In this document: piece after piece, positions 8,165 through 59,816 of the stretch
How the letters are laid out: every line of letters starts with the position of its first letter
How positions within the stretch are numbered: position 1 is the first letter of the stretch
DNA from: Heyndrickxia ginsengihumi
Lineage (GTDB): Bacteria; Bacillota; Bacilli; Bacillales; Bacillaceae_C
Reading direction: 5' to 3'
Length of the DNA stretch: 64,000 nt
NCBI RefSeq assembly: GCF_011008565.1
Contig: NZ_JAAIWK010000019.1
Coordinates: 1-64,000, forward strand
The notes under the pieces: model-generated
Database searches by the model: none
The model's input: the letters and a program-made list of their open reading frames with translations, nothing else
What the model was told of the DNA's origin: nothing
Position numbers and translations under genes: made by a program

Positions 8165-8548
8165 TTAAAGTATAGTAGAAGCTGGTTCTGCTGAAAGCAT
8201 CTCTTTAATTCGGTTATGTTCATCCATCAAAGCAATTTTAGGCTGGTGATGCAACATTTCTTCCTCTGTAAGCATTGCATAAGAAATGATGATGACGATA
8301 TCTCCTATTTGAGCAAGCCTTGCAGCAGCACCATTTAAGCAAATAACGCCGCTCCCTCTTTCGCCAGCAATGATATATGTTTCAAAGCGGGCCCCATTAT
8401 GATTATTCACAATTTGTACTTTTTCATTTTCTACCATTCCAACTGCATCTAAAATGTCAGCGTCAATTGTAATGCTCCCAACATAGTTTAGATTTGCCTC
8501 TGTCACAGTAGCTCTGTGAATTTTTCCGTTCATTAATGTACGCAACAT
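8165..8548 (-). CDS. panD: Aspartate 1-decarboxylase precursor
   Basis: Makes beta-alanine from aspartate for pantothenate synthesis. The 127-residue proenzyme has the self-cleavage site at Gly24-Ser25 in NYVGSITID, which would generate the pyruvoyl group, plus [13 protein letters not shown] and IIISYA. The start at 8548 follows GGAGGAGATGAC; an in-frame ATG 20 codons upstream lies in the panC-panD gap and would add an unlikely hydrophobic leader. Last gene of panBCD. Confidence 0.96.
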
Positions 8549-8582
8549 GTCATCTCCTCCAAAAAATGCACCGATTAAACAA

Positions 8583-9428
8583 TTATTTTTCAATAATAAT
8601 ATTATCAATTAGCCTTGCCTTAGAGAATTGTACGGCAATTGCAATGATACATGTGCCATTGATAGTGGCAATTGGTTCTAATTGAGGGTATGAATAAATT
8701 TCGACATAATCAATTTTTCCGTTTGTATGTTCTTGCAATTCATTAGAAATAAACTTAATAATTGTTTCCGTATGAAGTTCGCCTTCTTCAATTAATGCTT
8801 CAGCCTTCTTCAAGCTTCTATATAATGCTGGTGCTTCTTTTCTCTCCTCTGGAGTTAAGTAAACATTTCTCGAACTTTTAGCTAAACCGTCTTCTTCACG
8901 AACAATTCCAACTGGAACAATCTCAAGTGGAAAATTAAGATCATCAACAATGCTTTTTACAACTGCAACTTGTTGGGCATCTTTTAAACCAAAATAAGCA
9001 CGATCTGGACTAACGATATGAAAAAGTTTTGTAAGCACTGTTGCAACTCCATCAAAATGACCAGGACGTTTTCTTCCGCATAGCACATTTACTCGCTTTG
9101 TTACAATGATGTTTAGTGAAGCTTCACTTGGATACATTTCACTTACAGTAGGAACAAACAAATAATCGACTCCTGCTGTTTCTGCCTTTTTCTCATCCCC
9201 TTCAATATCTCGAGGATAACGATCAAAATCTTCATTTGGACCGAATTGAAGCGGATTTACAAAAATACTCATGACAACAACATCATTTTGTTTTTTTGCT
9301 TCTTCAACTAAATGTAAATGTCCTTCATGTAAATATCCCATCGTAGGAACAAAACCTATCGTTTTCCCAGCATTTCTAATGGATTTCATTTGTTCTTGCA
9401 TTTCTCGCACAGTTGTAATTATATTCAT
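8583..9428 (-). CDS. panC: Pantothenate synthetase (pantoate-beta-alanine ligase)
   Basis: ATP-dependent ligase joining pantoate and beta-alanine. It has 281 residues, with the HIGH-like nucleotidyl motif [10 protein letters not shown] near residue 30, the substrate loop [13 protein letters not shown], and [13 protein letters not shown]. Its ATG overlaps the panB stop by four bases (ATGA), indicating translational coupling. Second gene of panBCD. Confidence 0.97.
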
Positions 9429-10264
9429 TTGTTATTTCCCCCATACAAAGCTGCTAATTCTTCTTCCTTCATCGTATACGTATGTTTTTCTTCTGGAAAG
9501 ACTCCATTCTTTACTTCATGAACATACTGTTCTATACCGCTTATCATGAGATGATTTACATTTACAAACTGTTTAACAAATTTTGCAACTTTTTCATTTC
9601 CAAACGTCACCATATCGTGAAAGACAAGTACTTGCCCATCAACTTGGTTTCCAGCGCCAATTCCGATTGTTGGAATGGTTAACCTTTTTGAAACCTCTTC
9701 TGCTAGCTGCCAAGGTACACATTCTAATACAACGGCAAATGCTCCTGCTTGTTCACACATCAACGCATCTTCCATTAGCTTTTGTGCATCCTCTGATGAT
9801 TTTCCTTGGACTTTATAGCCACCAAGAACTCCTACTTTTTGTGGTGTCAAACCTAGATGAGAAACAACAGGGATACCTGCGGATGTTAAAGCTTGAATCA
9901 TATCAATGATCTCTGCTCCTCCTTCAAGCTTCACTGCATTCGCGCCGCCTTCTTGAATAATTTTGCTTGCTTGTCTTAACGTATCTTCTCTCGTTAAATG
10001 GTAAGACATAAAAGGCATGTCTGTAACAATGAATGTATTCGTTGCCCCTCTTTTGACTGCTTTCGTATGGTGGACCATGTCTGCTACAGTTACAGGAATT
10101 GTAGAATCATACCCAAGAACAACCATTCCTAATGAATCTCCAACTAAAATCATATCCACTCCAGCTTGCTCCGCTAATTTTGCCGTTGGAAAATCATAAG
10201 CTGTAATCATTGCAATTTTCTCTTTTTCTACTTTCATTTTTAAAAAATCTGTCGTTTGCTTCAT
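9425..10264 (-). CDS. panB: 3-methyl-2-oxobutanoate hydroxymethyltransferase
   Basis: First enzyme of pantoate synthesis, adding a hydroxymethyl group from methylenetetrahydrofolate to 2-ketoisovalerate. It has 279 residues forming a TIM barrel, with [18 protein letters not shown] and the IGIGAG loop before a Gln/Asp segment. A GAGGAG site precedes the ATG. First gene of panBCD, 310 bp downstream of birA, with a structured leader in between. Confidence 0.97.
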
Positions 10265-10300
10265 TTCAACAACTCCTCACCTGTCATAGTTGACTGGTTC

Positions 10301-10482
10301 AGAGGAAACCGAAACTATAAATAAAAGCCCTTCCATTGACAGAAGGGCTTATAATACATAGCTATTTCGTTTCGACCCTCTGTCCCCGTCCTTTTCGGAT
10401 CAAGGCAGAACCTATTCCATTTTATGCTTATGATCTACTGGTATAGTTCTGATAATAGATACTACCCAGGGACATTATAACA
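10301..10482 (-). promoter_or_regulatory. panB leader: candidate pan RNA motif with downstream terminator
   Basis: Minus-strand reading: an extended -10 promoter TGTTATAAT (10482-10474) is followed by two consecutive hairpins. Hairpin 1 (10469-10438) has arms CTGGGTAGT and ACTATACCAG with a bulged A. Hairpin 2 (10411-10382) has arms GTTCTGCCTT and AAGGACGGGGAC and can be drawn with two bulged A residues. Tandem hairpins with bulged A residues upstream of panB are the hallmark of the Firmicute pan motif (established family; its ligand is not known to me). Next comes an outer stem AGAGG..CGAAAC/GTTTCG..CCTCT that encloses a terminator hairpin, suggesting attenuation. Confidence 0.7.
10325..10350 (-). 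terminator. Attenuator-type terminator in the panB leader
   Basis: Minus strand: AAGCCCTTC (10350-10342), an 8-base loop, GAAGGGCTT (10333-10325), then TTATTTATAG. It lies before the panB start at 10264, so full-length transcription must read through it. Confidence 0.8.
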
Positions 10483-58798: not shown

Positions 58799-59374
58799 TT
58801 ATCGATTCTTTAGAACAGAATGCTTTTCAATCCAAGTTTGCATTCTGGAAAACATCAACATAAATAGAATAGTTACAATAATGCCTTTCACAATATTAAA
58901 CGGCAATACGCCAGAAACGATATAATCTTTTACATTTCCTACTGAGAAATTCATAAAATATAAATAGGCTGGTAAAATAACAAAATAGTTCAGTATGCTC
59001 ATAAATATAGCCATCGAGAAAGTGCCACCTAATAATGCAAACGTCATTCCTTTTTTTGTTCTTAAATTTCGATAAATATAGTAGGTTGGCAATACGAAAA
59101 GGATTCCTGCAAAAAAGTTTGCCAAGTTACCAATTGGTACACCCGCTTCACTGCCTATACTTAAATAATTTAAAATATTTTTAATTAATTCAGTAACAAT
59201 TGCACCTAAAGGACCATACAAAAGCGCAGCAATTAAAACTGGCACATCGCTAAAATCAACTGTTAAAAACGATGGGAATGATGGTATTGGGAACTTAATA
59301 AACATTAAAATAAATGACAAACTACTGAGTAAAGCAATTGCAACAAATGTTCTTACCGTCCATTTTTTCTTCAA
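58799..59374 (-). CDS. ribU: Riboflavin ECF transporter substrate-binding component RibU
   Basis: S-component of an energy-coupling factor transporter for riboflavin. 191 residues, six helices, with FIKFPIPSFPSFLTVDFSDV near residue 25-45 and GPLGAIVTELIKNIL. The start is TTG at 59374 after GAGAGG. It is preceded by a canonical FMN riboswitch and terminator, which strongly supports the substrate. The ECF ATPases are not in the window. Confidence 0.96.
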   Translation of the reverse strand: MKKKWTVRTFVAIALLSSLSFILMFIKFPIPSFPSFLTVDFSDVPVLIAALLYGPLGAIVTELIKNILNYLSIGSEAGVPIGNLANFFAGILFVLPTYYIYRNLRTKKGMTFALLGGTFSMAIFMSILNYFVILPAYLYFMNFSVGNVKDYIVSGVLPFNIVKGIIVTILFMLMFSRMQTWIEKHSVLKNR

Positions 59375-59469: not shown

Positions 59470-59535
59470 AGAAATCAGCGCACACTAATAAGCATTAAAA
59501 CATTATGAATTAAATGCTTAATACTGGCAACCTTT

Positions 59536-59666
59536 ATCTTCTCCCATCCAGACTTTACTGTCGGTTTTGGAATCTCACCAAATCCTGCCATTATATTAAC
59601 GGCTCGCGGACTAAAAGCATATTGCTTCATTACCGCCGGTCGGGAATTTCACCACGCCCCGAAGAT
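59536..59666 (-). promoter_or_regulatory. FMN riboswitch (RFN element)
   Basis: Minus-strand sequence carries all conserved blocks in order: ATCTTCGGGGCG, GGTGAAATTCCCGACCGGCG, GTCCGCGAGC, GGATTTGGTGAGATTCC, CCGACAGTAAAGTCTGGATG and GGAGAAGAT, with first and last blocks pairing. FMN binding should favour the terminator at 59438-59469 and shut off ribU. Confidence 0.97.
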
Positions 59667-59816
59667 AAATCGTATTCAATTTTTAATGATTTTTTCATTA
59701 CATTTTCATTATAACTTTTTATGGCTGAATTGTGAAGCGAAAAGCATTCGACTCAAATCAATTTATTTTTCTAATGAAAGAACACGATCAGTGACTGGCC
59801 TGACACTATGACATCA

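What the first reader, a model, noticed from the sequence alone, without database searches (positions are those of the whole stretch)
10301..10482. panB leader with two tandem bulged hairpins and a nested terminator
Both hairpins fit the pan RNA motif, whose ligand and mechanism I do not know to be settled. Here the motif is followed by an outer stem (AGAGG..CGAAAC with GTTTCG..CCTCT) that wraps a terminator, and preceded by an extended -10 promoter placing the start of transcription at the first hairpin. This gives a concrete attenuation model for a candidate riboswitch.
Basis: partly seen in the sequence, partly recalled or inferred. Interest (0 to 1): 0.5.

Follow-up and report, generated by a model that had tools for sequence, protein, structure and literature searches.

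The report
RNA switch for vitamin B5 genes
This is a known type of RNA control element in front of genes that make vitamin B5 (pantothenate); comparing it with its relatives suggests how it may switch those genes off and that it senses pantothenate or coenzyme A, which can now be tested directly.

Summary
The minus strand at 10468..10376 is a pan RNA (RF01749, 69.4 bits, cut-off 36.2) starting next to an extended -10 and followed by a terminator, a wrapping outer stem and panB. The outer stem covaries across related leaders.

The exclusive pairing is another one. The 3' strand of hairpin 2 (GACAGAGGG) can pair with hairpin 2's 5' strand, with the terminator's 5' arm (CCUUCUGUC), or through AGAGG with CCUCU, which otherwise covers the ribosome-binding site. 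Leaders without a terminator fit 'hairpin 2 formed = OFF' by layout, but their folding is mixed.

Outside the window's order, pan RNAs also precede PanF, PanS, ECF S, BioY-family and OPT transporter genes. Six of 22 genomes tested, with pan at such genes, gave no hit to panB or panC, which argues for pantothenate or a later product (CoA) as the signal, not pantoate.

It is a new member of a known orphan family. Whether RNA or a protein senses the signal is open.

The parts
10474..10482 (-). extended -10 promoter element TGtTATAAT; transcription start expected at about 10468
   Evidence: read; a -10-like hexamer within 20 nt of pan in 106 of 111 leaders, TG before it in 90 of the 109 leaders with such a hexamer
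10376..10468 (-). pan motif RF01749, two tandem hairpins
   Evidence: cmscan 69.4 bits, cut-off 36.2
10439..10468 (-). hairpin P1: 3 bp, 5 bp and 2 bp with a bulged A at each end of the 5-bp helix
   Evidence: Rfam alignment; at least 8 of 10 such pairs in 111 of 111 leaders by script
10379..10409 (-). hairpin P2, same architecture as P1
   Evidence: Rfam alignment
10376..10384 (-). shared strand GACAGAGGG: 3' side of P2, or antiterminator, or (AGAGG) outer stem
   Evidence: duplex -14.8 kcal/mol with 10346..10338
10338..10346 (-). CCUUCUGUC, terminator 5' arm and loop, antiterminator partner
   Evidence: best antiterminator-like duplex among 74 terminator-like hairpins of the window, next best -10.0
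10317..10350 (-). intrinsic terminator hairpin 10350..10325 and T-rich tail
   Evidence: hairpin -14.9 kcal/mol
10369..10381 (-). outer stem, 5' half
   Evidence: the part after pan covaries with the 3' half across leaders (pair types)
10301..10315 (-). outer stem, 3' half, ending in CCUCU, which can instead pair with the ribosome-binding site
   Evidence: blocking CCUC opens the ribosome-binding site from 0.285 to 0.733 in this leader
10273..10278 (-). ribosome-binding site GAGGAG of panB, 8 nt before the start codon
   Evidence: read
9425..10264 (-). panB, followed by panC (9428..8583) and panD (8608..8165)
   Evidence: ORFs; panC and panB used as queries found homologues; the names panB, panC, panD were given on sight

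Best explanation
The leader is a pan RNA that works as an OFF switch for panB-panC-panD. When the signal (most likely CoA or pantothenate, bound directly or through a protein) is plentiful, it stabilises the two bulged-A hairpins. Hairpin 2 then keeps its 3' strand GACAGAGGG, the terminator's 5' arm is free, and transcription stops. When the signal is scarce, that strand pairs with CCUUCUGUC as soon as it is made, before the terminator's 3' arm, and polymerase reads on. In the read-through message AGAGGG and the following seven bases form the outer stem with the CCUCU region, which otherwise covers the ribosome-binding site. Shown here: the elements, their conservation and the covariation of the outer stem. 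Computed only: the competition between pairings. Inferred: the sign, the signal and the kinetics.
For: Antiterminator: in 104 leaders the P2 3' strand pairs with the downstream region at -12.1 kcal/mol, against -8.3 with shuffled downstream and -9.95 with the strand reversed (own better than reversed in 82 of 104); in 100 of 104 the best duplex lies on the terminator's 5' arm or loop. In transcripts ending at the terminator loop the pairing probability is 0.78 against 0.33 shuffled, above 0.5 in 84 against 18 of 104; 0.99 in this leader. Of 74 terminator-like hairpins of the window only the pan one carries CCTTCT. With P2 prevented, against P2 forced, terminator probability falls by more than 0.1 in 43 of 104 and rises in 0. 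Translation arm: with P2 prevented, against forced, the ribosome-binding site opens in 43 and closes in 4 of 104 leaders, while blocking P1 gives 5 and 5; blocking the outer stem's 5' half closes it in 19 and opens it in 1. Sign, by layout: in leaders without a terminator the ribosome-binding site lies in or directly after P2's 3' strand (L051, L080, L089 before panB; L178, L231, L232, L243 before ECF S genes) or only an outer stem or an equivalent is left (L087, L046, L062) (read). Signal: pan also precedes panF (L201, L262; TIGR02119 484 and 368 bits, cut-off 328), PanS-like, ECF S, BioY-family and OPT genes, and 6 of 22 genomes with pan at such genes have no hit to panB or panC.
Against: In this very leader the terminator stays at 0.96 at equilibrium with P2 forced or prevented, so antitermination must be kinetic; polymerase footprint and speed were not modelled. 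61 of 104 leaders show no fall of the terminator above 0.1. The antiterminator duplex beats all but 5% of shuffles in only 48 of 104 leaders one by one, and in none of L009, L012, L015, L020. P2's 3' strand hardly varies in the order, so the antiterminator has no covariation of its own. Among the six leaders read as terminator-less, preventing P2 opens the ribosome-binding site in one (L080, 0.06 to 0.51), closes it in two (L051, 0.50 to 0.19; L046, 0.41 to 0.29) and changes it by 0.05 or less in three (L062, L087, L089). The simple, separable hairpins (linker 10 to 75 nt) look more like a protein site than a usual metabolite pocket.
Confidence: 0.62

Rival explanations
1. The two hairpins bind a dimeric protein (as the discoverers suggested) that senses the CoA state; the RNA itself binds no metabolite. 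Control of terminator and ribosome-binding site downstream is as described, so this rival concerns the sensor and overlaps with the best explanation.
For: Two like hairpins joined by a linker of 22 to 48 nt in 111 leaders and 10 to 75 nt in 126 others; few conserved bases; tandem layout; suggestion in PMC2864571 (passage).
Against: No candidate protein was found; none was sought. One pan RNA (L145) seems by eye to hold hairpin 2 alone, though Rfam aligns it over the whole model. Small metabolite aptamers exist (recalled).
Confidence: 0.42
2. The outer stem alone is the switch: it forms or not and so decides termination.
For: The outer stem is real and covaries.
Against: It contains the terminator as a nested hairpin, so both can form together, and its 3' half lies after the terminator tail. 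It also occurs without a convincing terminator (L087).
Confidence: 0.04
3. The terminator is constitutive, the conserved CCUUCU merely reflects descent, and regulation is translational only.
For: Equilibrium folding gives 0.96 terminator in this leader with P2 forced or prevented; 56 of 104 leaders do not reach 5% against shuffles one by one.
Against: Loop bases UGUC or UGCC, not needed for the terminator stem, recur, and another group carries CCCCUGUC in a different, larger terminator (L009, L012, L015, L020; read by eye, single leaders not below 5%). Pairing in the truncated transcript exceeds shuffles.
Confidence: 0.22

Closest known systems
pan RNA motif, RF01749 (Weinberg et al. 2010, PMC2864571; passages seen)
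   Different: The passages seen describe the stems only; here a terminator, an antiterminator, an outer stem and a helix over the ribosome-binding site are added, and the controlled genes widen to importers. The paper's supplements were not seen.
Transcription-terminating OFF riboswitches with a shared strand, for example FMN (recalled)
   Same: A receptor strand shared with an antiterminator; the bound state terminates; some act on transcription and on translation.
   Different: No ligand is shown, and the receptor is two small separate hairpins.
Protein-bound attenuators such as the PyrR or the LicT and SacY sites (recalled)
   Same: Small bulged hairpins in a leader before a terminator.
   Different: No protein is known here, and the alternative pairings differ.

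Membership tests
pan RNA motif RF01749 | Covariance-model score above the curated cut-off | tested here: met
   69.4 bits against 36.2, full length; one match in the own genome
pan RNA motif RF01749 | Tandem stems each with two conserved bulged A | tested here: met
   Rfam alignment; script parse of P1 and P2 in 111 of 111 leaders, this one included
pan RNA motif RF01749 | Upstream of panB, panC or panD genes | tested here: met
   panB-panC-panD follow
Riboswitch | Located in the 5' untranslated part of the regulated message | tested here: met
   Promoter position by consensus in 106 of 111 leaders; no mapped start site
Riboswitch | Expression platform that excludes one receptor structure | tested here: inconclusive
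   Computed competition; in this leader the terminator is not lowered at equilibrium
Riboswitch | Specific binding of a metabolite by the RNA alone | not testable with these tools
   Needs in-line probing
Protein-dependent attenuator | A protein that binds the leader and is present in all pan genomes | not tested
   No candidate was searched for

The most novel reading that the evidence does not exclude
pan RNAs are a natural riboswitch for coenzyme A (or for pantothenate or 4'-phosphopantetheine): a pair of bulged-A hairpins that bind the cofactor directly and shut off its precursor synthesis and several import routes, in prototrophs and auxotrophs alike. This would fill a gap that a 2022 review names.
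Probability: 0.33. Interest if true: 0.86.

Novelty: new member of a known kind. Interest (0 to 1): 0.55.

Why it matters
A 2022 review names CoA as an enzyme cofactor surprisingly lacking a known riboswitch (PMC9971707, passages); a second lists CoA among cofactors that lacked one a decade earlier (PMC10043782, passages). The work here turns pan from a motif before panBCD into a candidate regulator of pantothenate and CoA supply, with a definite shared-strand platform, a predicted sign and a shortened list of signals. Auxotrophs that hold pan before importers argue against pantoate made de novo as the general signal. In-line probing with CoA, 4'-phosphopantetheine and pantothenate, and transcription assays, are immediately worth doing.

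Tried and rejected
Rejected: the outer stem as the deciding antiterminator (compatible with the terminator). Disfavoured: pantoate or beta-alanine as the general signal, because 6 of 22 genomes tested with pan at unusual genes have no hit to panB or panC (the queries were the window's own proteins, so a very diverged enzyme could be missed). The fold from 10482 pairs bases probably upstream of the transcription start and was set aside.

Led nowhere: ten literature searches. Their listings showed pan itself only in the discovery paper and two transcriptome papers (passages); listings are capped (one search shows 20 of 212, one search shows 20 of 21), and most listed papers were not opened, PMC8297930 (P. 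aeruginosa 3' ends, names panB) among them. Passages of PMC12570885 and PMC10393543 mention no pan RNA. NCBIfam gave no specific name for the one DUF2520 protein scanned; that this family may be a ketopantoate reductase is recalled. The named scan gave 43 stretches, mainly Domibacillus, Rossellomorea and other Bacillaceae, and leaves out the window's own genome; the species of the window was not found. The name Bacillales for the window's order is inferred from these names.

Limits of the sample: the 111 leaders are L001, the 30 best-scoring others, and 80 chosen for spread from the places listed (319 genomes had a match), so they lean to good scores. Seven of 111 (L051, L062, L080, L089 without a scripted terminator; L046, L087, L094 whose scripted terminator I judged doubtful) were dropped before the antiterminator and outer-stem tests, leaving 104. 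For the group with the large terminator (L009 and others) the script takes only part of it; in L009 that part has probability 0.00 in both states. The 140 unique places of the gene survey were picked for families and second copies, so their numbers are not frequencies, and 'first gene' there means the earliest tblastn hit to my own reference list within 1500 nt.

Scripts that failed or were replaced: searches (start finder, replaced in 27; wrong pattern, redone in 27), the second half; one search was redone with the listed strands.

Full report
What is there. On the minus strand the window reads, from 10482 downwards: extended -10 TGtTATAAT (10482..10474), two hairpins (10468..10439 and 10409..10379), a terminator (10350..10325 with a T-rich tail), the 3' half of an outer stem (10315..10301), the ribosome-binding site GAGGAG (10278..10273) and panB (start 10264), then panC and panD. 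Rfam calls 10468..10376 a pan motif, RF01749, at 69.4 bits against a cut-off of 36.2. One match was found in the own genome.

How common it is. Of 397 genomes of the order, 319 have a match at E <= 0.001 and 315 one over the cut-off. Of 398 genomes of the phylum 152 have one, 139 over the cut-off; of 150 genomes of another class 99, 90 over the cut-off. These searches use stricter filters and miss some (L328, below). I took 111 leaders of the order. In 111 of 111 a panB-like start follows at 8 to 353 nt (median 114). A -10-like hexamer lies within 20 nt of the pan start in 106 of 111, against 311 of 3470 control windows. So the RNA probably begins at or next to hairpin 1; no start site was mapped.

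The two hairpins. Both have the same plan: 3 bp, a bulged A on the 3' side, 5 bp, a bulged A on the 5' side, 2-3 bp, loop. A script found at least 8 of 10 pairs for P1 and for P2 in 111 of 111 leaders, and for P1 in 126 and P2 in 135 of 135 others, with several standard pair types at many positions, changes on both sides included. The script picks the best pairing and had no control; some positions are weak (P1 outermost pair 60% and 71% standard, the fourth pair of P2's 5-bp helix 60% in the order), and P2 in the order varies little (15 distinct pair sets). The linker varies from 22 to 48 nt in the first set and 10 to 75 nt in 126 of the second, so the hairpins look like independent modules.

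The outer stem. After leaving out 7 leaders, 104 were tested. The 18 nt after pan pair with the stretch between terminator and ribosome-binding site at a mean of -8.9 kcal/mol for own partners and -6.5 for partners from dissimilar leaders; own is better than the swapped mean in 86 of 104. Among 59 cluster representatives own is -8.54 against a permuted mean of -6.35 (sd 0.28); none of 5000 permutations was as low; own is better in 49 of 59 and in the best 5% in 12 of 59.

What the outer stem cannot do. It encloses the terminator, so both can form at once, and its 3' half is copied after the terminator tail. It cannot decide termination. The exclusive partner of the terminator is the 3' strand of hairpin 2.

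The antiterminator. GACAGAGGG (10384..10376) pairs over nine consecutive positions with CCUUCUGUC (10346..10338), -14.8 kcal/mol. Across 104 leaders the mean is -12.1, against -8.3 with shuffled downstream sequence and -9.95 with the strand reversed; the best duplex lies on the terminator's 5' arm or loop in 100 of 104, but only 48 of 104 are individually below 5% of shuffles. Among 74 terminator-like hairpins of the window only the pan terminator contains CCTTCT, and the next best duplex is -10.0 (median -4.65); CCTTCT is in the scripted terminator of 77 of 104 leaders. One group (L009, L012, L015, L020, L099) has a different, larger terminator with CCCCUGUC in it, which again pairs with GACAGAGGG (read; the four of these printed with a shuffle test, L009, L012, L015 and L020, are at 8 to 18% of shuffles).

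Timing. In transcripts cut at the terminator loop, unconstrained folding pairs the P2 3' strand downstream with a probability of 0.78, against 0.33 when the downstream part is shuffled; above 0.5 in 84 against 18 of 104; none of 8 shuffles reaches the real value in 59 of 104. In this leader the antiterminator measure is 0.99 and P2 0.27. At full terminator length, preventing P2 instead of forcing it lowers the terminator by more than 0.1 in 43 of 104 leaders and raises it in none (mean 0.85 to 0.58). Scrambling the P2 3' strand weakens this (0.58 real, 0.74 scrambled; real lower in 36, higher in 5). Against the model: in this leader the terminator stays at 0.96 either way. The switch here would have to be kinetic, and the polymerase footprint was not modelled.

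The ribosome-binding site. CCUC lies within 70 nt before it in 96 of 104 leaders, median 14 nt. Mean openness is 0.22 unconstrained (104 leaders) and 0.48 with CCUC blocked (96 leaders); here 0.285 and 0.733. Blocking the outer stem's 5' half closes the site in 19 leaders and opens it in 1 (0.285 to 0.137 here); blocking P1 as a control changes 5 up and 5 down; preventing P2 against forcing it opens the site in 43 and closes it in 4 of 104, and in this leader moves it from 0.21 to 0.47. So the CCUCU strand has two partners, AGAGG of pan or the ribosome-binding site.

Leaders without a terminator. In L051, L080 and L089 the pan 3' end GACAGAAGG or GACGGAGGG lies directly before the panB start and holds or adjoins the ribosome-binding site; in four ECF S leaders (L178, L231, L232, L243) the P2 3' strand with GGGAUGGGAGG does the same; L087 keeps an outer stem, L046 and L062 an equivalent (read). 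By layout these fit one sign, P2 formed means OFF. Folding is mixed: without P2 the site opens in L080 (0.06 to 0.51), closes in L051 (0.50 to 0.19) and L046 (0.41 to 0.29), and hardly changes in L062, L087 and L089.

Other bacteria. For 140 unique pan places (135 outside the order, chosen for spread, not random) the earliest tblastn hit to my reference proteins within 1500 nt was a DUF2520/Rossmann-like protein in 63, panB 22, panC 21, ECF S 10 (two of them, L125 and L225, after a gene that looks like birA by eye), PanS-like 8, BioY family 4, panD 3, OPT 2, none 7. The seven are yhdT(DUF997)-panF in L201 and L262 (TIGR02119, 484 and 368 bits, cut-off 328), birA-coaX in L254, an e(P4)-type acid phosphatase in L190, an amidohydrolase in L221 (scanned) and L246 (alike by eye), and a 78-residue unknown in L141. 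Family scans were made on single examples: DUF2520 two, BioY two, OPT two, PanS one, ECF S one. PanS (L156) scores 300.7 bits, below the NCBIfam cut-off of 400, and is SBF in Pfam at 165 bits. Rfam found pan over the cut-off in 20 of 20 such loci rescored. Literature fits: PanS carries pantoate and occurs as panD-panC-panS (PMC6593275, passages); a related transporter binds pantoate but not pantothenate (PMC10645422, passages); yeast Opt1 imports CoA precursors (PMC12406275, abstract).

Shared strand outside the order. Of 135 such leaders 129 have a terminator-like hairpin within 230 nt; pairing of the P2 3' strand with its 5' arm region in truncated transcripts is 0.54 against 0.28 shuffled, above 0.5 in 69 against 20 of 129, and no shuffle of 8 reaches the real value in 49 of 129. 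This is weaker than in the order.

The signal. Of 22 genomes tested with pan at an importer or other unusual gene, 10 have no panC hit and 12 no panB hit; six have neither (G621, G754, G718, G739, G430, G851; 95 to 100% complete). Such auxotrophs could not use pantoate made de novo as a signal. Control of panF, and of coaX behind birA in one genome, points to pantothenate or later, CoA being the product common to all routes. This is inference. Of the 20 pan-negative genomes of the order looked at (the first listed of 78), 18 have panB; in 15 panB directly follows the end of birA with no leader (read by eye); L328 does carry pan (49.2 bits), missed by the fast search, and L324 and in part L326 look like pan by eye.

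What is known. [quoted passage not shown] Two transcriptome papers list pan before panB (PMC4342826 and PMC5670726, passages). The listings showed no ligand, platform or importer link for pan; most listed papers were not opened. The discovery paper's supplements were not readable here. A review of 2022 names CoA as a cofactor without a known riboswitch (PMC9971707, passages).

Verdict. The window element is an ordinary member of a known orphan family. What is worth following is the platform and the regulon, which make the question of the pan signal testable.

Noticed in passing
window 59670..59532, minus strand: An FMN riboswitch (121 bits) before an ORF at 59374..58799 that looks like the riboflavin ECF S component RibU by eye; ordinary.
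   Followed up: partly
L201, L262: pan RNA before yhdT-panF, the sodium/pantothenate symporter operon.
   Followed up: yes
L145, L161, L224, L247: pan RNA before BioY-family ECF S components, which may therefore carry a B5 vitamer and not biotin; L145 seems by eye to hold hairpin 2 only.
   Followed up: partly
L153, L154: pan RNA before OPT-family transporters, candidates for bacterial import of pantetheine-type CoA precursors.
   Followed up: partly
L190; L221 and L246: pan RNA before an e(P4)-type acid phosphatase and before amidohydrolases with a secretion-like start (by eye), candidates for CoA-precursor scavenging outside the cell.
   Followed up: partly
L178, L231, L232, L243: ECF S genes with the ribosome-binding site at the end of pan hairpin 2 and no ATG, GTG or TTG at the expected place; AUU (L178) or AUA stands 8 nt after GGGAGG (read).
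   Followed up: no
L311-L323, L325, L327: In 15 pan-negative genomes panB directly follows the end of birA without a leader, so promoter, pan and terminator are absent together.
   Followed up: partly
L324: A pan-like leader with a very long hairpin 1 loop that Rfam does not report at E <= 1.
   Followed up: no
L141: pan and a terminator before an uncharacterised 78-residue protein with two CxxC pairs; no Pfam or NCBIfam match.
   Followed up: partly
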